NCBI GenBank assembly: GCA_001871115.1
Contig: MNUR01000032.1
Coordinates: forward strand, 1-64,000
Direction of reading: 5' to 3'
Source of the DNA: Elusimicrobia bacterium CG1_02_56_21
GTDB lineage: Bacteria; Elusimicrobiota; Elusimicrobia; Elusimicrobiales; UBA9959
DNA length: 64,000 nt
The notes below the pieces were generated by a model. It worked only from the letters and a program-made list of their open reading frames with translations. It did no database searches and was not told the origin of the DNA. Of the stretch, positions 11,011 through 64,000 are shown in pieces. Numbering within the stretch: position 1 is the first letter of the stretch; each line of letters starts with the position of its first letter. The position numbers and the translations under genes are program-made.

Positions 11011-11910
11011 TTACAGCGAAATATCGTTAAACTCCACCGAGGCGACAAAAGGAGAGCGGGAAAGCTCCCCTATCATGTCCATCGGCAGGGTTCCCGTAAC
11101 ATTGAACACGCTGAACTTGGAATCATTATTTTTCTGGGGCATCCTGAACCAGGCTTCGGCGTCAAATCCGCCCTCGTCCGTAAGGCGTTTTACAAACTCG
11201 GGAACAAAAGCGTTAGGCCTGTTCTGGTAGGGGACTTTAAGCGTAAACCGCACTTTGGCCTTAAGCGGGACCCCGATTCTCTTTTTTTCCACTACTACCC
11301 CGCCGACCCCGCTGATCTTTGATATTTTAGAGATGCCCGAATACGGCGCCCAGCCGAGAATAACGGTTTTTTTTGTCTTTACGGAATAGGAGATCTTTTC
11401 CCCGGCAAACCGCAGGCCCGCGGCTTCAAGCCTGGCCAGAACTTTATCATAGGGACCTTCGCCTACCGAGATCCCGAGAAGGACATATTCCCTGGCATAT
11501 TTCCTGGAGCCTGAATCCAGCGGCCACACAAAAGACCCGACCGGTCCGCTGTCCCCGGCAAAAGTTACTTTATAATGCCCGTTCGGGAGCATGGGCAGGC
11601 CGCTCCGGTCCTCCGGACGCACCCTTGGATCTGCAGACTTTTTTTCTGCGGGAGCCGGGTTTTTAAGCGTAGGGGCGGGAGAAGAAAATACGGAATCCCT
11701 GAAATCACCGGTCTCCCGGAAATCAGTGCGGATCGCCAGTGTGTTCTTTGAATTAAGATAGCCGTCGGCAGTTTCTATGAAGTCCTGGAAAACCGGGTCG
11801 GCGTAAGGTCCGGCCCCGGCGAGGGGGTCGCCGGCTGAATATACGCCTTCGGCGGAAAGGTTGGCGGCGCAGGCCGTGAGCAGAATAGCTATTATCAGGT
11901 TTTTTTTCAT
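11011..11910 (-). CDS. Secreted protein of unknown function with two ferredoxin-like inhibitor-type modules
   Basis: 299 residues with a clear signal peptide (MKKNLIIAILLTACAANLSA). The middle is a low-complexity Pro/Lys linker. Two parts look alike in outline: residues ~165-215 (GEKISYSVKTKKTVILGWAP ... ISGVGGVVVEKK) and ~230-299 (VPEFVKRLTDEG ... ELSRSPFVASVEFNDIS). Each has a strand, a helix with repeated Ile/Leu, then VGGVVVE or VASVEF. That pattern resembles inhibitor I9-like or ACT-like folds and is my inference, not a firm family call. Cysteine occurs only in the signal peptide. The gene is transcribed alone, ends at a strong terminator, and begins just downstream of a hairpin followed by a U-run that could attenuate its expression. 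Confidence 0.6.
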   Translation of the reverse strand: MKKNLIIAILLTACAANLSAEGVYSAGDPLAGAGPYADPVFQDFIETADGYLNSKNTLAIRTDFRETGDFRDSVFSSPAPTLKNPAPAEKKSADPRVRPEDRSGLPMLPNGHYKVTFAGDSGPVGSFVWPLDSGSRKYAREYVLLGISVGEGPYDKVLARLEAAGLRFAGEKISYSVKTKKTVILGWAPYSGISKISKISGVGGVVVEKKRIGVPLKAKVRFTLKVPYQNRPNAFVPEFVKRLTDEGGFDAEAWFRMPQKNNDSKFSVFNVTGTLPMDMIGELSRSPFVASVEFNDISL

Positions 11911-55810: not shown

Positions 55811-56260
55811 ATGAAAAACCTGAGAAAGGGGTTCACCCTGATAGAGCTGATGATAGTGGTTGCGATCATAGGTATTCTGGCTGCGATAGCCATACCCAAG
55901 TTCGCGGACCTCATCAACAAGTCCAAGGAAGGCGCGACGAAAGGCGCTCTTTCCTCGGTGCGCAGCGCGGTACAGGTGTACTACGGCGACAATGAAGGCT
56001 GGTTTCCGGCCGACGACCTCGCCTGCATAACGGCCAATGCCAAGTACCTGAAGGAAATGCCCCTGGCCAAGCTGCCGGGCACCGGCCACGGAGATGTCGC
56101 CACAGTGGTGAACACCTACGCGGACGGAGGCGGCTGGTACTACGCTAACGACATAACCATCTCCACTACCTGGGGTAATTTTGTCGTCAGCTGTTCACAT
56201 GAGGACATAAAGGGCCGGGATCCTGCCGGTACCCAGTTCTCGCCCTGGTCGACCTTCTAA
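55811..56260 (+). CDS. pilA: Type IV pilin / pseudopilin
   Basis: 149 residues. Prepilin peptidase should cut after Gly 7 in [20 protein letters not shown], with the key Glu at position +5. The helix is followed by a short globular part with [19 protein letters not shown] and a C-terminal [10 protein letters not shown]. Only two Cys are present, which could form the usual disulfide loop. The family form with YYGDNEGW is one I associate with Elusimicrobiota. AGGAGGT precedes the ATG. It is a single-gene transcript between two strong hairpins. The only pilT in the window is a pseudogene. Confidence 0.95.
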
Positions 56261-56327: not shown

Positions 56328-58403
56328 TTAAGAAAGGTCTATCAGGTTCCAGCGGGCGGCGTAGATCTCCTGCAATTTGCGCTTCAGGCCGGCGTTCTCT
56401 TTCTTGACCAGGTCCGGGTCGGCCGCCAGAACCAGCTCCCTGTCCTCTATAGCCTGCGCCAGGATATCCTTGTCCCGGGACATATCAGCCAGCTTAAAAT
56501 CCATATCACCGTGCTGGCGCACCCCCAGTATCTCCCCCGCTCCCCTTATATATATATCCTTTTCGCTCAGCTCGAAACCGCTGGAAGACTGCGCCATCGC
56601 CCTCAGCCGCTCCGGCGAATCCCCGGCGCGGGCATGCGCCACAAGCAGGCAGCGGGAATCCCACTTGCCGCGCCCCACCCTGCCCCTGAGCTGGTGCAGG
56701 CTGGCCAGGCCGAAGCGCTCGGCATTGTTTATGACCATCAGAGTGGCGTTAGGCACGTCAATACCCACCTCTATTACCTGAGTAGCCACCATGACATCGG
56801 TCCGCCCGGCCGCGAAATCCGCCATTACCTGTTTTTTAAGTTCGCCGGGCATGCGCCCGTGCAGCATGTCCACCCGCCGCCCCTTGAAAAACAGTTTAAG
56901 CCGCTCAAATTCCGCCTTTACGGACTTCATATCCGCGGCCTGAGTCTCCTCTATTACCGGGTAGACTATATAAACCTGCCGGCCTTTAGAAACCTCGTCC
57001 GCCGCGGCCTGGAAAGCTATATCTTCCGTGGATTCGGCGGTTTTAACCGGCTTGCGGCCCGGCGGCATTTCCCTTATTACCGAGAGGTCCAGGTCCCCGT
57101 ACAGGGCAAGAAATAGCGTCCGGGGGATAGGGGTTGCGGTCATTATAAGCATATCGGCCTTGTCGCCCTTGGCGCGCAAAGCCGCGCGCTGCCGCACCCC
57201 GAAACGGTGCTGCTCGTCCACAACCACCAGGCGAAGGCTATTGAATTTCACCCCCCCGCCTATAACCGAGTGAGTCCCTATCAAAATGTCTATCTTGCCC
57301 GAAGCCAGGTCGTCGAGGACCTTCTTTTTCTCAGCCGCTTTCAGGCGGCCCGTCAAAAGGGCGAACCTGACTCCCAGGCCTTTGAGAAATTTTTCAAAAG
57401 TGAGAAAATGCTGCTCGGCCAGTATTTCGGTCGGGGCGGCGAACACGCTCTGCCCCCCGTTCTCGGCCGCCAGAAGCATAGCGCTGAGCGCGACCACGGT
57501 TTTACCGGAACCCACATCCCCTTCCAGCAGGCGGGCCATAGGGGTGGCGGACTGCATATCGGCGAATATCTCGTTTATAGCGCGGGCCTGGCCGGCCGTA
57601 AAGCTGAAGCCCAGGTTCTCCCGGAAAGGCGTGAGCAGGCTCTTCTTTATTTCATAAGAGAATCCTTTGCGCACGCTGCGGGTCTGGCGCCTTTTTATGG
57701 CCCAGGCCAGAGCGAGCAGCAGCAGCTCCTCATAGATGAATCGGCGCCGGGCCTGGACCAGCTCAAAATTGTTCTCGGGGAAATGTATGGCCCTGGCCGC
57801 CAGGTCGCGGGCGGCCAGCCCCCGGCGCGCGGCCAGCCCGGCAGGCAGAAAATCACCCACGCCTTCGGCCCCGGCCTTTACCGCCTCGTAAACGGCTTCG
57901 CGCATAAATCTTGCGTTCAGGCCCCCCGTGAGAGGATACACGGGAACGATGCGGCCCACATGAATCCTGAGGGCGCGGATATCGTCATCAGGGTAATATT
58001 CGTCCGCTCTCAGCCGGCTGAGGAAAAGGGGGTCTTCGGGGGTTCCGGTTATCCAGACAGTGCGGCCCTCTTTCAGATCTTTTTTCAGCAGTGCGAATAC
58101 GTCGAAACGGGGATTATGCCGCTTAAAAAAACTGGCCTCGGCCTCTCCGTACCGCGTCTCTACTATGACCTTGAAAATGCGCAGGCGGCCCGAGGTATAA
58201 AGATCCCGCACTGTCTTTATCCTGCCCTTTATAACCGGAGAGGCCTCCAGGAGAGACGAAAGCTCCCTTTTGTCCCGCAGCCTGCGGTCTTCCCACTTAC
58301 GGGGGAAATAAAAAAGCAGGTCGTCGAGCGTCTCTATACCGAGGCGCCCGAACAGCTCCGCTTTTTTAGGGCCTACGCCTTTGAGGAATTGAATTGAAGT
58401 CAT
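56328..58403 (-). CDS. recG: ATP-dependent DNA helicase RecG
   Basis: 691 residues, full length. The wedge/OB part is at the N-terminus (FLKGVGPKKAELFGRLGI). The motor has Walker A GDVGSGKTVVALSA (~296), Walker B VVVDEQHRFGVRQR (~396), TATPIPRTL, and motif VI QLRGRVGRGKWDS. RecG remodels stalled forks and Holliday junctions. It faces the pilin gene. The 58404-59377 gap upstream holds the tandem RNA units. The gene context does not suggest a specialised role. Confidence 0.97.
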   Translation of the reverse strand: MTSIQFLKGVGPKKAELFGRLGIETLDDLLFYFPRKWEDRRLRDKRELSSLLEASPVIKGRIKTVRDLYTSGRLRIFKVIVETRYGEAEASFFKRHNPRFDVFALLKKDLKEGRTVWITGTPEDPLFLSRLRADEYYPDDDIRALRIHVGRIVPVYPLTGGLNARFMREAVYEAVKAGAEGVGDFLPAGLAARRGLAARDLAARAIHFPENNFELVQARRRFIYEELLLLALAWAIKRRQTRSVRKGFSYEIKKSLLTPFRENLGFSFTAGQARAINEIFADMQSATPMARLLEGDVGSGKTVVALSAMLLAAENGGQSVFAAPTEILAEQHFLTFEKFLKGLGVRFALLTGRLKAAEKKKVLDDLASGKIDILIGTHSVIGGGVKFNSLRLVVVDEQHRFGVRQRAALRAKGDKADMLIMTATPIPRTLFLALYGDLDLSVIREMPPGRKPVKTAESTEDIAFQAAADEVSKGRQVYIVYPVIEETQAADMKSVKAEFERLKLFFKGRRVDMLHGRMPGELKKQVMADFAAGRTDVMVATQVIEVGIDVPNATLMVINNAERFGLASLHQLRGRVGRGKWDSRCLLVAHARAGDSPERLRAMAQSSSGFELSEKDIYIRGAGEILGVRQHGDMDFKLADMSRDKDILAQAIEDRELVLAADPDLVKKENAGLKRKLQEIYAARWNLIDLS

Positions 58404-58601
58404 TTAAGAAACCGGAAATAGAGAATCGGGTCGCCGCCTGGCGCGGGCCTTTTGCCGCCCGCCGTTCCTCCGGGTCTATCTCCTCCTGGAATATTTTAGA
58501 AAATTAGCGGGGTCAGCGGGCGGAATATCGTCGGGAATCCCCGCTTTTATTTCTTGAAGTTGTTTTGAGCCGCAGTTGAGCGATTCCTGAACGGCCTTTG
58601 T

Positions 58602-58846
58602 TATACTTTAAGTGCAGGAGCAAGCTCTTTAAAAACAGGTCGTTTGCAGGATAAATCCGGAACGACACAACAGATCTCCAGCGCTGCACGGTGCGCCCCC
58701 CTAACCCAACCCCCAAGACTCGGGGCCTTCGGGCTCCGTGCTCTATGCATCTGCAGCGCTGGCTAATTTATAGCCCCGCCGGACAACAGCAACACTCCCC
58801 CATCAGGCTTTTGTAAGGCTAAAATACGGCAGGCGGGGCGCTTTTT
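58602..58846 (+). ncRNA. Tandem structured RNA unit 1 (unknown family)
   Basis: Extended -10 TGTTATACT (58599-58607) predicts a start near 58614. After a 5' hairpin (GTCGTT/AACGAC) comes the conserved module 58671-58770. It is closed by CCAGCGCTG/CAGCGCTGG, has an inner GCACGG/CCGTGC, a hairpin GGGGCC-UUCG-GGCUCC and a C-rich strand (CCCCCCTAACCCAACCCCC). Then GCCCCGCC (58773-58780) pairs with GGCGGGGC (58832-58839) around a 51-nt loop, followed by GCTTTTT. Length is about 233 nt. No protein frame of note. I cannot match it to 6S, tmRNA, RNase P or SRP RNA. Confidence 0.7.
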
Positions 58847-58888
58847 AACCAAAAAGCCAGTCTTGAACGTTTCTTGAACGCCTTTTGT

Positions 58889-59246
58889 TATAATTTTTAA
58901 GCAGTATAGTTCTTTACAAACAGATCCCCAGCGCTGTACGGTGCGCCCCCCTAACCCAAACCCCCAAGACTCGGGGCCTTCGGGCTCCGTGCTCTATGCA
59001 TCTGCAGCGCTGGCTTAATTTATCCCGAATCCTGCACCGCAGGTTCCCCGCGATAGCGGGGCGAGGACCAAGCGCTATGCGCGCCGCGTCCGAGAGGGTG
59101 TATATCGCGCTGGAAGCGGCCCCGCCATGCGGGGAAAAAGTTTCAACAGAAACTTTTCGATTAAAGCCCCGCCGGGCAGCATCAAATAAGTCTCCTTAGT
59201 AAGTCCAACCGCAAATCACCACGAATGTTCCGGCGGGGCGCTTTTT
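58889..59246 (+). ncRNA. Tandem structured RNA unit 2 (paralogue with insertion)
   Basis: The extended -10 TGTTATAAT (58886-58894) predicts a start near 58901. The module at 58921-59023 is ~96% identical to unit 1 (two substitutions, two one-base insertions). One substitution turns a G-C of the inner stem into G-U, so pairing is kept. A 141-nt insert (59024-59164) with several hairpins, including AAAAGTTTC/GAAACTTTT, separates it from the terminal stem GCCCCGCCGG (59166-59175)/CCGGCGGGGC (59230-59239). The 54-nt loop differs completely from unit 1 and contains CTCCTT, complementary to Shine-Dalgarno sequences. A T-run ends the unit. Confidence 0.7.
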
Positions 59247-59364
59247 GGCCCTGTATTTAAAAGTGCGGAGCAAACCTGCTATTCCGGCGGGATCCGGCCA
59301 TTCCACCCAGCCTCCCTTATGTCGCCCCCTTTCCCGGCGGCCCACTATTTACTGGAAAGTATTA

Positions 59365-59377: not shown

Positions 59378-60064
59378 ATGAAACAGCGAGCCCTCATTGC
59401 GGACGATGACGCGGACCTCCTGGCTATTCTAAAGCGCTACCTGGAGAACCACGGGCTCGAGACCGCGCTGGCCGCTGACGGCGTAAAAGCGCTGGCTCTT
59501 GCCTCCTCAACCAAGCCCGACATTATCATTACCGACGTGGACATGCCTCTCATGGACGGGTTTACCCTTTGCCGCAGGATAAAAGAATCCAAAACCCTCA
59601 GGGGCATCCCGCTCATAATCATGTCCGGCAAGAAAGTTTCCGAGGCGGATATGGTATCCGGCTACAATTTCGGCGCTGATGATTATGTGATAAAGCCTTT
59701 TTCCTATCCGCTGCTGATAGCAAAGATAAAAGCCGTAATCCGCCGCAGAGAAAAAAAGCCGCAAAAGCCGCCGGTTCTTAAAAAAGGCGGCCTTGAACTT
59801 AATCTTGAGGGCAGGACAGCCAAGCTTAAGGGAAAAGTGCTGAAACTTACCTCCAAGGAACTGGACCTGCTCGCCGCCCTGGTCTCAAATCCGGGACGCG
59901 TGCTCAGCTTGACCGGCCTGCTTGAATCCGTATGGGGGTATAACACCGCCGACTACAATAACCCGCACACCGTAGAAGTACATATCTCCAACCTGCGTAA
60001 AAAGACCGGGACTTTCTCTAAACGCATAATAGCCGTCCCCGGGCACGGCTATAAATTCGAATAA
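59378..60064 (+). CDS. OmpR/PhoB-type response regulator
   Basis: 228 residues. Receiver domain ~1-120: acidic pocket DDDAD near residue 9-11, phospho-Asp 53 (IITDVDMPLMDG), Thr/Ser in IIMSGK and Lys ~103 in VIKPFSYP. Effector domain ~130-228 is a winged helix (LTSKELDLLAALVSNPGRVLS, VEVHISNLRKKTG, VPGHGYKFE). It should bind DNA after phosphorylation. Its TAA overlaps the ATG of the next sensor gene by one base (TAATG), which links the two as a signalling pair. The promoter appears leaderless. Confidence 0.95.
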   Translation: MKQRALIADDDADLLAILKRYLENHGLETALAADGVKALALASSTKPDIIITDVDMPLMDGFTLCRRIKESKTLRGIPLIIMSGKKVSEADMVSGYNFGADDYVIKPFSYPLLIAKIKAVIRRREKKPQKPPVLKKGGLELNLEGRTAKLKGKVLKLTSKELDLLAALVSNPGRVLSLTGLLESVWGYNTADYNNPHTVEVHISNLRKKTGTFSKRIIAVPGHGYKFE

Positions 60065-63000
60065 TGCCCAAAAGCCATCCCAAAAGCCCGGAAGCGCGCA
60101 TCTCAAGGGAAGTCCTGCATGATTTTCTGCTCGCTGCAGGCTCTCCCGACAATCAGGACGCTTTCCTGCGCAGAATACTGAATATCCTTTCCAGGCAGGA
60201 CGCCCTGGGCGCGGCCGCCGCTTTGGCCGTAGCGCTGCCCCGGGGAGAAAACCCCGCTTCCCTGACGGCATCCCTTAATTTCACAAAAAAAGAACTGCAG
60301 CGGCTTTCAGCTATTAACAGTGTCCCCTATAAATGGCCGGAAAATATTTTATGGGCCCCCATACAATGCGGGCCCCTTAAAGGTTGCCTGCTGGCCCGTC
60401 TTTCCTCTCCAGATTCACGCGGGGCCGCCGCAGAACTTCTTGAAACAGCCGCGGCAGTAATATCCGGCCGCCTGGCCCAGGAAAATCGGGAAGCTCAGCT
60501 TATCCGGGAACGGGATATAGCAGACTCAATCTCCCATCTCGAAGAACTCTACCTGGCTTTTCCTTCTATTTCGATAGAAGAAATTTCGAGAACCGTGCTT
60601 GACGAAGCAAGACGCCTCACCGGAAGCGCTTTCGGCTTTGCCGGCTATATAGACACTGCCACCGGCTTTCTTTGCGTTCCGTCCGCCTCCGGGCGGGCCG
60701 GCAGAGCGGCCCGCGGAAACAAGAGAGAACTGCTATTCAAGGAATTTGCCGGGCTCTGGGGGTGGGTGCTCAGGAATAAAAAGCCGCTGCTTACCAACTC
60801 CGCAGGCTCCGACCCGCGGGCCAAGGGCCTGCCGGGCTGGCATGTAAGGATCAGCCGGTTTGCGGCGGCGCCTGCCATTTCCGGAAACAAGCTTTTGGGC
60901 ATTATAGCCCTGGCCAACCCGCCCGGGGCCTATCCTCCGGCCGCCCTCGACACCGTAAAAAAGCTGGCGCGGATATACGCCCTGATGCTGCACCACAAGC
61001 TCTCTGAGAAGCAGATGCAGGCCGACGACAGCAAGAACAAGTCGCTGCTGGACTCCTCGCTTGACATGATTTTCAACCTGACCGTGAAAGGAGAACTGAC
61101 CTATGTCAGCCGGGCGATAAAGAACTACGGCTATTCCCCGGAAGAAGTCCTGGGGAAAAGCCTTATAAGCTTCGTCCACCCCGCAGACCGGGAGCGGATA
61201 ATCAAGATTTTCCTGTCCGCCTTGAAAAAAGGGTCCTCTCTGCCGCAGGTAAGCTACCGCCTGCGCAAAAAAGACGGCTCCTTTATTTTGATAGAACAAA
61301 AAACCTCGGTTCTTCCGCGCGCCGGCAGCGCGCCTCTTATAACCGGCGTGCTGCGCGATATTACCGAGTACCGCCAGGCCCAGGAAAAGCTGGCCGAGAC
61401 CGAGAAAAAGCACAGAACACTTTTCGAGAACGCCCAGGCCGCGATCATCATTGCGGACGCCGCTACCGGCACGATACTGGACGTAAACAAAAACGCCGAA
61501 AAGCTCACCGGCTGGACGCGCCGGGAACTTATAGGCATGAACCGGCTGAAGATACACCCCGGCGAGTCCTCCGCCTTTTATCTTAAGCAGTTCAAAACCC
61601 ACTCCCGCAAAGGCCAGGCCGTATCCGAGGAAGCGGAGATTCTCCGCAAAGACGGCTCCGTCATACACACAAGACTGAGTTCATCAAAACTTAAACTGGG
61701 TGACAGGGAGGTCATGCAGGGGATATTTCTTGACATGACCGGACAGCGCCGGGCCGAATTGCTGGTCCGGAACATAGTGGAAATGAATCCGATGTCGATA
61801 CAGATAGTGGACAAAAAAGGGTACACACTTACTTCAAACCCGGCACATACCCGCCTGTTCGGCTCGGTTCCGCCCCCGGACTACTCTATTTTTGAGGACC
61901 GGCAGTTAAAGAAACAGGGTTTCGGACCCTTACTAACCCGCATTAAAAAAGGTGAAACAGTCAATTTCCCCGACACTTCTTACAATGTCCATAAGTTCAA
62001 CCCCGGCCTGCCGGACCGCCCGGTCTGGCTGAGGACAGTTGTATTCCCTCTCAAGGACAGCGCCGGCAAGCCTGAACGCTTCGTGATAATGCATGAGGAC
62101 ATTACCGCCCGGAAGCAGGCTGAATTGGCTATCCGCGACGGGGAGGAAAATTATAAACGGCTGGTAGAGAACCTTGGAAAAAAATATTTCTTTTACCAGC
62201 ACGATACCAATGGCATATTCAGTTACTTAAGCCCCTCAATAAAAGGCTGCCTGGGTTATACCGTAGAAGAGTTCATGGCCCACTTCAGCAAATACCTCAC
62301 CGAAAGCCCCCTCAACAAAGATGTTCTAAAGCACACCGCCCTCTGCATCCGCGGAATACAGCAGCCGCCTTACGAGGTAGAGATCTACCACAAAAACGGG
62401 TCCACGCATCTGCTTGAAGTTACAGAAACACCGCTGAGAGGATTAAACGGGGAAGTTACGGGAGTGGAAGGCCTCGCCCATGACATCACCGAGCAGAAGC
62501 TTAAAGAAAAAGAGGTGAAGGAATCCGAAACGCGGTATAAAGCGCTGTTCGCGGGCATAGCGACCGGAATACTCGTCGCGGACTCGAAAACCAAAACATT
62601 CCTGTACGCGAACCCGGCCATGTGCCGGATGCTGGGCTACACGGAAAAGGAGTTCACGGGCCTGGGCGTTCACGACATTCATCCCAAAAAATATTTGCCG
62701 CATGTACTATCAGAATTTGAGGCCCAGGCGCGGGGAGAAAAGAAAATAGCCCTGGACCTCCCCTGCCTCCGCAAAAACGGAACCGTAATATGGGTTAATA
62801 TACTTACCGCATCGCTTTTCCTGGACGGCCGTGACTGCCAAGTGGGGCAATTCACGGATATCACCGAAAGCAAGCGCCTCGCGAATATCCTCAGCGAAAG
62901 CGAAGAAAAATACCGCACACTTTTTGAAACCTCGCGCGACGCGCTTATGATCCTTGAGCCCCCCCGCTGGAAATTCGCCCAGGCTAACGAGGCCACGCTT

Positions 63001-64000
63001 AATCTTTTCGGAGCCCCCGAGGAATCCGATTTCCTGAAGCTTACCCCATGGGACATCTCCCCTAAAAAGCAGCCGGACGGCCGGATTTCCGCGAAGAAAG
63101 CTAAAAAGGCGCTGGGGATTGCCTTAAAAACCGGCTCTCATTCCTTCGAGTGGGAACATAAACGCCTTTACGGCCCCGTATTCTCTTCCGAGGTCCTGCT
63201 GACGCGGGTACAGATCGGCGGAAAACCCTTCATCCAATCCTGCGTGCGGGATATAAGCGCAAGAAAGAGAATAGAGGAACTGCTGCGCCAGAGCGAACTG
63301 CGCCAGCAGCTGGCGATGTCCCAGATAAACGGAATTCTCTGGGTACTGGATAGAACCCTGAGGTTTACCCTCTCCAGGGGGCAGGGCCTGACCGCACTCG
63401 GACTTAAACCCGACCAGATAGTGGGAATGACGCTGGAGGAATTCATGGGCCGGGCAGGCCCTGGGGACCAGTCCCTGAACGCGCATTACAGCGCGCTTCG
63501 CGGCAAGAACGTGAATTATGAAGTGAGAATAAGCAATATCGACTTCAGCGTGATCCTGTCTCCCTTAAGAGACAAGAAGAATAAAATTATCGGAGTCGTC
63601 GGCCTGGGGCTGAATATTACCGATAAAAAAAGAATGGAGAGGCTGTTGAAGGAGAACCAGGAAACCCTGAGCAAGATCTTTGAAACCACTACGGACGGGA
63701 TGTACATTAAAGATCTCAGCGGCATCTATACAATAGCAAACAGCGCTTTCGCCAGGCTCTTTAACAAGAAACCCAAAGAAATTCAGGGTGTCTCGGACAG
63801 ACAACTTTTATCGCCGGAAGACGCTGCCGACGCCGAAAAAGAGGACTCGGAGATGCTGAAGAGCGGAAAAACTCTGAACTTCACCAGGACCAGGACCCTC
63901 CCCGCGGGAACCCGCTATTTCAACACTATCAAGACCCCGATCCGCAACCTTCAGGGAAAAATCACCGGGGTTCTGGGGATATCCCGCGATATAACCTCGC
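60064..64000 (+). CDS. Very long multi-PAS sensor protein, C-terminus outside the window (partial)
   Basis: An open frame from ATG 60064 to the right edge, at least 1312 residues. The N-terminal ~130 residues are unassigned. Residues ~165-310 look like a GAF domain (EEISRTVLDEARRLTGSAFG). From ~330 on I count eight PAS repeats, each beginning like YRTLFETSRDALMIL or HRTLFENAQAAIIIADA and most ending in DIT-type PAC motifs (GVLRDITEYRQAQEKL, GLAHDITEQKLKEKE, QFTDITESKRLANIL). No transmembrane segment is seen. A HisKA/ATPase module probably follows outside the window, making it the kinase for the overlapping response regulator; that is inference. Confidence 0.9.
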   Translation, partial: MPKSHPKSPEARISREVLHDFLLAAGSPDNQDAFLRRILNILSRQDALGAAAALAVALPRGENPASLTASLNFTKKELQRLSAINSVPYKWPENILWAPIQCGPLKGCLLARLSSPDSRGAAAELLETAAAVISGRLAQENREAQLIRERDIADSISHLEELYLAFPSISIEEISRTVLDEARRLTGSAFGFAGYIDTATGFLCVPSASGRAGRAARGNKRELLFKEFAGLWGWVLRNKKPLLTNSAGSDPRAKGLPGWHVRISRFAAAPAISGNKLLGIIALANPPGAYPPAALDTVKKLARIYALMLHHKLSEKQMQADDSKNKSLLDSSLDMIFNLTVKGELTYVSRAIKNYGYSPEEVLGKSLISFVHPADRERIIKIFLSALKKGSSLPQVSYRLRKKDGSFILIEQKTSVLPRAGSAPLITGVLRDITEYRQAQEKLAETEKKHRTLFENAQAAIIIADAATGTILDVNKNAEKLTGWTRRELIGMNRLKIHPGESSAFYLKQFKTHSRKGQAVSEEAEILRKDGSVIHTRLSSSKLKLGDREVMQGIFLDMTGQRRAELLVRNIVEMNPMSIQIVDKKGYTLTSNPAHTRLFGSVPPPDYSIFEDRQLKKQGFGPLLTRIKKGETVNFPDTSYNVHKFNPGLPDRPVWLRTVVFPLKDSAGKPERFVIMHEDITARKQAELAIRDGEENYKRLVENLGKKYFFYQHDTNGIFSYLSPSIKGCLGYTVEEFMAHFSKYLTESPLNKDVLKHTALCIRGIQQPPYEVEIYHKNGSTHLLEVTETPLRGLNGEVTGVEGLAHDITEQKLKEKEVKESETRYKALFAGIATGILVADSKTKTFLYANPAMCRMLGYTEKEFTGLGVHDIHPKKYLPHVLSEFEAQARGEKKIALDLPCLRKNGTVIWVNILTASLFLDGRDCQVGQFTDITESKRLANILSESEEKYRTLFETSRDALMILEPPRWKFAQANEATLNLFGAPEESDFLKLTPWDISPKKQPDGRISAKKAKKALGIALKTGSHSFEWEHKRLYGPVFSSEVLLTRVQIGGKPFIQSCVRDISARKRIEELLRQSELRQQLAMSQINGILWVLDRTLRFTLSRGQGLTALGLKPDQIVGMTLEEFMGRAGPGDQSLNAHYSALRGKNVNYEVRISNIDFSVILSPLRDKKNKIIGVVGLGLNITDKKRMERLLKENQETLSKIFETTTDGMYIKDLSGIYTIANSAFARLFNKKPKEIQGVSDRQLLSPEDAADAEKEDSEMLKSGKTLNFTRTRTLPAGTRYFNTIKTPIRNLQGKITGVLGISRDITS

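What the first reader, a model, noticed from the sequence alone, without database searches (positions are those of the whole stretch)
58590..59250. Tandem paralogous structured RNAs with a conserved core and swapped terminal loops
Two units in a row share an extended -10 promoter, a ~100-nt module ~96% identical, and a GC stem followed by a U-run. The ~50-nt loops inside that stem are unrelated. The module folds into nested stems with a UUCG hairpin and an exposed C-rich strand; one base change is a G-C to G-U swap that keeps pairing. Conserved scaffold plus variable loop suggests small RNAs that present different target-recognition sequences. Loop 2 carries CTCCTT and loop 1 ACTCCCCC, both able to pair with ribosome-binding sites. 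No known family fits.
Basis: partly seen in the sequence, partly recalled or inferred. Interest (0 to 1): 0.85.

Follow-up and report, generated by a model that had tools for sequence, protein, structure and literature searches.

The report
Twin regulator-linked C-rich small RNAs
Two tandem noncoding RNA genes, conserved across one family of Elusimicrobiota beside the same signalling genes and lying in no catalogued RNA family, look like small regulatory RNAs switched on by that signalling system, with an exposed C-rich strand, an rRNA-type boxA start and a repeated seven-letter motif that may capture mRNAs or a protein.

Summary
Each unit is one gene: TTGARC hexamers at 11-bp spacing (OmpR/CiaR-type operator geometry), an extended -10, a boxA at the 5' end, a ~92-nt module and an intrinsic terminator with a ~50-nt loop. 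The module is a true RNA: across 54 distinct homologues 21 of 26 pairs show two-sided changes (135 cells against 27 shuffled). Rfam has nothing. Homologues occur only in one family of Elusimicrobiota (seven genera). In 15 of 15 other-genus loci the module lies beside orthologues of the window's response regulator and PAS sensor. The operator pattern occurs nowhere else in 32 genus genomes. The terminator loops are not unrelated: they share a tandem heptamer [GA]U[AC]AGNC, and 20 of 21 three-copy arrays in the genus lie at this locus. Best reading: response-regulator-activated, stand-alone sRNAs in an Hfq-less lineage, like LhrC, csRNAs or OmrA/B, acting through the C-rich strand. The best recurrent complement is a G-rich 3' UTR of a receiver gene, in 20 of 28 genus genomes; ribosome-binding-site targets were not enriched. 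Protein titration by the heptamers (CsrB-like) is the main rival. All evidence is comparative; there are no expression data.

The parts
58554..58592 (+). Unit 1 operator: four hexamers (TTGAAG, TTGAGC, TTGAGC, CTGAAC) at exact 11-bp spacing
   Evidence: Sequence; pattern TTGARC-N5 x3 + TTGTTATA found 41 times in 27 of 32 genus genomes, always at this locus, control 0; same 11-bp TTGA spacing in all 15 other-genus homologues
58599..58607 (+). Unit 1 extended -10 (TGTTATACT); no -35 at usual spacing; start inferred near 58614
   Evidence: Sequence, conserved in the genus
58624..58634 (+). Unit 1 boxA, GCTCTTTAAAA, exact match to consensus GYTCTTTAANA
   Evidence: 42 of 45 units at <=1 mismatch, 0.07 expected; rRNA leaders of the genus carry GCTCTCTAAAAA
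58673..58764 (+). Unit 1 structured module
   Evidence: Covariance model 107.2 bits; covariation
58696..58715 (+). Unit 1 exposed C-rich strand (CCCCCCUAACCCAACCCCCA)
   Evidence: Unpaired in MFE; near-invariant in 35 genus sequences
58772..58846 (+). Unit 1 terminator hairpin with ~50-nt loop and U-run; heptamers ATCAGGC 58802-58808 and GTAAGGC 58813-58819
58863..58879 (+). Unit 2 operator: two TTGAAC hexamers at 11-bp spacing (a third, upstream, is degenerate)
   Evidence: 3 mismatches
58886..58894 (+). Unit 2 extended -10 (TGTTATAAT); start inferred near 58900
58909..58919 (+). Unit 2 boxA-like GTTCTTTACAA (one mismatch)
58923..59015 (+). Unit 2 structured module
   Evidence: 113.1 bits; fold z -3.8
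58946..58966 (+). Unit 2 exposed C-rich strand (CCCCCCUAACCCAAACCCCCA)
   Evidence: Unpaired in the fold
59022..59160 (.). Dispersed palindromic repeat inserted between unit 2 module and terminator; probably not part of the RNA's core
   Evidence: Four other copies in the genome, 73-81% identity
59166..59246 (+). Unit 2 terminator hairpin with ~50-nt loop; heptamers ATAAGTC 59186-59192 and GTAAGTC 59199-59205 flank TCCTTA
59378..60064 (+). OmpR/PhoB-type response regulator, proposed activator of both units
   Evidence: Response_reg + Trans_reg_C; orthologue adjacent in homologous loci across genera
60064..64000 (+). Multi-PAS/GAF/HisKA sensor protein (runs to 64263, beyond the window); proposed partner of the regulator
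   Evidence: Pfam; synteny

Best explanation
The locus encodes two tandem, stand-alone small RNAs (about 234 and 347 nt) switched on by the neighbouring OmpR-type response regulator, which binds the 11-bp-spaced TTGARC hexamers next to an extended -10. Each RNA starts with a boxA, which recruits NusB/S10 and probably protects the untranslated, C-rich transcript from Rho. It then folds into a rigid module that holds a ~20-nt C-rich strand open, and ends in an intrinsic terminator with a heptamer-repeat loop. In this Hfq-less lineage the C-rich strand pairs with G-rich mRNA sites; the best recurrent candidate found is the 3' UTR of a HTH-receiver gene. Shown here: RNA structure, conservation, the operator array, the boxA match, synteny. 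Inferred: regulator binding, boxA function, pairing, direction of regulation.
For: Covariation: 21 of 26 pairs with two-sided change, 135 cells vs 26.9 shuffled, 0 of 500; slid controls at most 27. Family-wide distribution and linkage to the regulator and PAS sensor. Operator found only here in 32 genomes, control 0, and kept in 15 of 15 other-genus homologues; geometry equals the CiaR box TTTAAG-N5-TTTAAG with the -10 ten bases on (PMC3091779). BoxA in 42 of 45 units vs 0.07 expected and in 15 of 15 other-genus homologues at <=2 mismatches, matching GYTCTTTAANA (PMC5725501) and the genus rRNA boxA. In genera g13 and g14 the module lies downstream of the sensor gene, so it is not a leader of the regulator. 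No Hfq in 61 genomes, control positive, which fits C-rich seeds as in LhrC (PMC4132741) and sX13 (PMC3771888). G-rich 3' UTR complement in 20 of 28 genus genomes, duplex -35 to -53 kcal/mol, z -3.5 to -8.3; in the own genome the only non-sRNA match to GGGTTAGGGGGGCG within one mismatch.
Against: No transcript data. Regulator binding is inferred from geometry and synteny only. The 3' UTR site can also pair with a second C-rich hairpin RNA encoded just downstream of it, and in genome G080 fits that RNA better (-37.1 vs -32.3); the site is lost or diverged in other genera, whereas the C-rich strand is not. No conserved ribosome-binding-site target was found. The pairing model does not explain the heptamer arrays.
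Confidence: 0.58

Rival explanations
1. The RNAs are protein decoys: the heptamer array in the terminator loop (and perhaps the C-rich strand) titrates an RNA-binding protein, as CsrB or RsmY/Z titrate CsrA under a two-component system. Base pairing is secondary.
For: Heptamer core T[AC]AGNC 85 times in 42 distinct loops vs 7.8 shuffled; 20 of 21 three-copy arrays in 32 genomes are at this locus; exact 12-nt spacing in genus g10 (L162, L164); heptamers found in another part of the RNA in g13 and L046. Spacers vary while heptamers stay, as expected of protein sites.
Against: The most conserved element is the C-rich strand, not the array. Genus g14 homologues lack the array. No candidate protein identified. 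The shuffle control ignores shared descent.
Confidence: 0.27
2. The C-rich strand is a Rho loading site (rut) and boxA its antagonist: the RNA acts on transcription termination or as a Rho sink rather than by pairing.
For: C-rich, G-poor, unpaired strand downstream of a boxA in nearly every unit; boxA complexes prevent Rho termination (PMC5725501).
Against: The strand is fixed almost letter by letter (CCCCCCUAACCCAAACCCCCAAG), far beyond what Rho requires; the module structure is also conserved. Rho not tested here.
Confidence: 0.08
3. The units are a 5' leader/attenuator of the response-regulator operon: boxA and the terminators control read-through into the regulator gene.
For: In the window and most of the genus the units lie upstream of the regulator on the same strand, with terminators in between.
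Against: In g13 and g14 the module is downstream of the sensor gene. The regulator has its own TATAAT just upstream of its start codon. Each unit has a complete promoter.
Confidence: 0.05

Closest known systems
LhrC1-5 of Listeria (PMC4132741)
   Same: Multicopy near-identical sRNAs wholly dependent on a two-component response regulator; [quoted passage not shown] Hfq not needed for action
   Different: LhrC is 111-114 nt with redundant UCCC motifs at a translation start; here the RNA is 2-3 times longer, has a boxA, one long C-rich strand in a covarying module and a heptamer array; no RBS targets found; no homology
csRNAs of Streptococcus, CiaRH regulon (PMC3091779)
   Same: Several related sRNAs under one response regulator; operator of two hexamers with N5 (11-bp repeat) ten bases before the -10; Hfq-less host
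   Different: 51-202 nt, mostly simple two-hairpin RNAs with SD/AUG complementarity; different hexamer; no boxA mentioned in the passages read
OmrA/OmrB of enterobacteria (PMC12692685)
   Same: Duplicated sRNAs in one intergenic region under OmpR, shared part plus diverging part
   Different: Short (88 nt for OmrA), Hfq-assisted, 5' seed; lie between aas and galR, not beside the regulator gene
sX13 of Xanthomonas (PMC3771888)
   Same: Hfq-independent RNA with C-rich loops that acts on G-rich mRNA motifs
   Different: 115 nt with three hairpins and 4C loops; no regulator linkage seen in the passages read; no homology
CsrB / RsmY / RsmZ
   Same: Two-component-controlled RNAs with a repeated short motif in loops (own knowledge; GacAS-RsmY/Z named in PMC4132741)
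   Different: Motif is GGA there, [GA]U[AC]AGNC here; protein unknown

Membership tests
Any Rfam 15 family | Covariance-model score above gathering threshold | tested here: not met
   Best hits far below threshold, unrelated
LhrC family | Two-component response regulator control | tested here: inconclusive
   Synteny and operator geometry agree; binding not testable
LhrC family | Several UCCC motifs aimed at ribosome-binding sites | tested here: not met
   One long C-rich strand; no enriched RBS complement
csRNAs (CiaRH) | Operator TTTAAG-N5-TTTAAG, ten bases before the -10 | tested here: not met
   Same spacing, different hexamer TTGARC
OmrA/OmrB | Action assisted by Hfq | tested here: not met
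   No Hfq in 61 genomes of the order, positive control
sX13 | C-rich unpaired segments | tested here: met
   analogy of action, not homology
sX13 | G-rich targets near translation starts | tested here: not met
   the recurrent G-rich site is in a 3' UTR
CsrB/RsmZ-type decoys | Repeated GGA motif in loops | tested here: not met
   A repeated motif is present but it is [GA]U[AC]AGNC
CsrB/RsmZ-type decoys | Titration of an RNA-binding protein | not testable with these tools
   Needs pull-down
BoxA-carrying transcripts | GYTCTTTAANA near the RNA 5' end | tested here: met
   42 of 45 genus units at <=1 mismatch; 15 of 15 other-genus homologues at <=2

The most novel reading that the evidence does not exclude
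A new class of boxA-led regulatory RNA in an Hfq-less lineage: two-component-activated RNAs with two working parts, a C-rich pairing strand held open by a conserved scaffold and a spaced heptamer array that captures an unidentified RNA-binding protein, so one RNA both pairs with mRNAs and titrates a protein.
Probability: 0.25. Interest if true: 0.82.

Novelty: new variant of a known kind. Interest (0 to 1): 0.64.

Why it matters
It gives Elusimicrobiota, a mostly uncultured lineage in whose order no Hfq was found, a well-supported regulatory RNA family with a probable controller, and a handle on how sRNAs work without Hfq. A boxA at the start of a stand-alone sRNA would extend Nus-factor antitermination beyond rRNA and mRNA leaders; the E. 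coli boxA survey states that it did not consider non-coding RNAs (PMC5725501). The heptamer array predicts an unknown RNA-binding partner that can be fished out directly.

Tried and rejected
Rfam at permissive thresholds: nothing. Viral contigs: no match. An alternative CCCC/GGGG hairpin in the module: no covariation at all. RBS targets of the C-rich strand: not above the reversed control; the single good case (G016, L048: GGGGTCGGGGTTAGGGGGGCGTATG) was not seen to recur. Hfq: absent, although loops contain Hfq-like CAACA runs. 5' leader of the regulator: rejected by gene order in g13/g14. HTH-receiver 3' UTR in other genera: G-rich in some, exact complement of the module only inside the genus. 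The leader print was on the wrong strand for five loci; one search corrects it.

Full report
What is there. The window lies in a ~3.0-Mb Elusimicrobiota genome; its genus holds 31 further genomes here. Between recG (56328-58403, minus) and an OmpR/PhoB-type response regulator (59378-60064, plus) stand two noncoding units in tandem. Their modules are 96% identical. A covariance model built from 35 genus sequences scores them 107.2 and 113.1 bits.

It is an RNA. The module folds stably by itself (z -3.8). In 35 distinct genus sequences 98.8% of pair cells are standard pairs and 13 of 26 pairs show two-sided changes; 51 cells against 10.8 shuffled. Adding other genera (alignment fitted to the model, which leans towards the structure) gives 21 of 26 pairs and 135 cells against 26.9, with at most 27 in slid controls. 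The inner AGAC/GCUCU helix, invariant in the genus, covaries across genera (AU to GC and CG). The C-rich strand CCCCCCUAACCCAAACCCCCAAGAC is unpaired and almost invariant.

Distribution. A pattern scan of about 85,000 species genomes hit only records named Elusimicrobia, or unnamed bacteria whose contigs coincide with genus genomes. The model found 36 of 295 phylum genomes, all in one taxonomic family, seven genera. Most genus genomes carry two tandem copies (22 loci with two); other genera mostly carry one, so the duplication belongs to the genus. The pair is not universal: G008 (84% complete) has no match.

Control. Upstream of each unit stand TTGARC hexamers at 11-bp spacing followed by an extended -10 without a normal -35. 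The pattern occurs 41 times in 27 of 32 genus genomes, always at this locus, control 0, and the TTGA spacing is kept in 15 of 15 other-genus homologues. This is the geometry of CiaR operators (PMC3091779). Orthologues of the regulator and the PAS sensor flank the module in the other genera, 15 of 15 loci; in g13 and g14 the order changes, the linkage does not. The two remote hits L173/L174 lack this linkage and are probably a separate C-rich RNA. That the regulator binds these hexamers is inference.

BoxA. Eleven to 27 nt after the -10 lies GYTCTTTAANA: 17 of 45 exact, 42 of 45 within one mismatch, 0.07 expected. All 15 other-genus homologues have it at up to two mismatches. The rRNA leaders of the genus carry GCTCTCTAAAAA. 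The E. coli study that gave this consensus says non-coding RNAs were not considered. A boxA protecting an untranslated C-rich RNA from Rho is my inference.

Terminator loops. They are orthologous within each position and share a heptamer [GA]U[AC]AGNC, usually two or three times per loop: core T[AC]AGNC 85 times in 42 distinct loops vs 7.8 shuffled (related sequences inflate this). A three-copy array search of 32 genomes gave 21 hits, 20 at this locus. In g10 the spacing is exactly 12 nt. In g13 and L046 heptamers sit upstream of the module; g14 has none. Variable spacers with fixed heptamers favour a protein partner.

Targets. In the own genome the only non-sRNA match to the complement GGGTTAGGGGGGCG within one mismatch is the 3' UTR of a HTH_17-receiver gene, and the same place carries the site in 20 of 28 genus genomes. 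Predicted duplexes are -35 to -53 kcal/mol. Some 120-180 nt further on lies a second conserved C-rich hairpin RNA with its own sigma-70-type promoter and terminator, in 28 of 32 genus genomes and several other genera. It pairs with the same site, less well in all 20 genus cases, better in G080. So the site is a credible hub for C-rich RNAs, but which RNA is its partner is open. Ribosome-binding-site targets were not enriched. Hfq is absent from the 61 genomes of the order that were searched.

Verdict. A new RNA family that most probably works as two-component-controlled sRNAs, nearest in logic to LhrC, csRNAs and OmrA/B and in chemistry to sX13, but a member of none. The combination of boxA, open C-rich strand in a covarying scaffold and heptamer array was not met in the papers read; the literature search was limited to open-licence papers.

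Noticed in passing
L003 1647-1735 (G000:C106 ~11252-11340): Second conserved small RNA: TTGACA-TAAACT promoter, stem GGGCTGCCT/AGGCAGCCC around the C-rich loop CCCTCACCCTACCCCCCAAT, U-run; near identical in 28 of 32 genus genomes and in other genera; no Rfam hit in L055.
   Followed up: partly
L003 1497-1525; L055, L056, L062, L064, L066-L068, L070, L072 equivalents: G-rich, possibly G-quadruplex-forming element between stop codon and terminator of a HTH_17-receiver gene, complementary to both C-rich RNAs.
   Followed up: partly
L173 2341-2419 (-), L174 2290-2368 (+): Further hairpin with CTCCTCCCTAACCCAAACCCCCAAG loop and U-run upstream of another gene in genus g12: probably a third C-rich RNA type.
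   Followed up: no
L039, L040, L042, L044, L085: Dispersed long hairpins whose loop carries GGGGTTTGGGTTAGGGAGGC or similar (C-rich on the other strand); strand and function unclear.
   Followed up: no
window 59022-59160: Dispersed palindromic repeat inside unit 2 between module and terminator; four further copies in the genome (73-81%); similar sequence starts at the same place in the G003 and G015 first units.
   Followed up: partly
window 60064-64263 (past the window end): 1399-aa PAS/GAF protein ending in HisKA with no HATPase domain matched; followed by a double-receiver protein. Unusual partner for a response regulator.
   Followed up: partly
G000-G060: No Hfq found in 61 genomes of the order while positive controls rang.
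   Followed up: yes
window 55811-56260: Type IV pilin-like ORF ([31 protein letters not shown]...).
   Followed up: no
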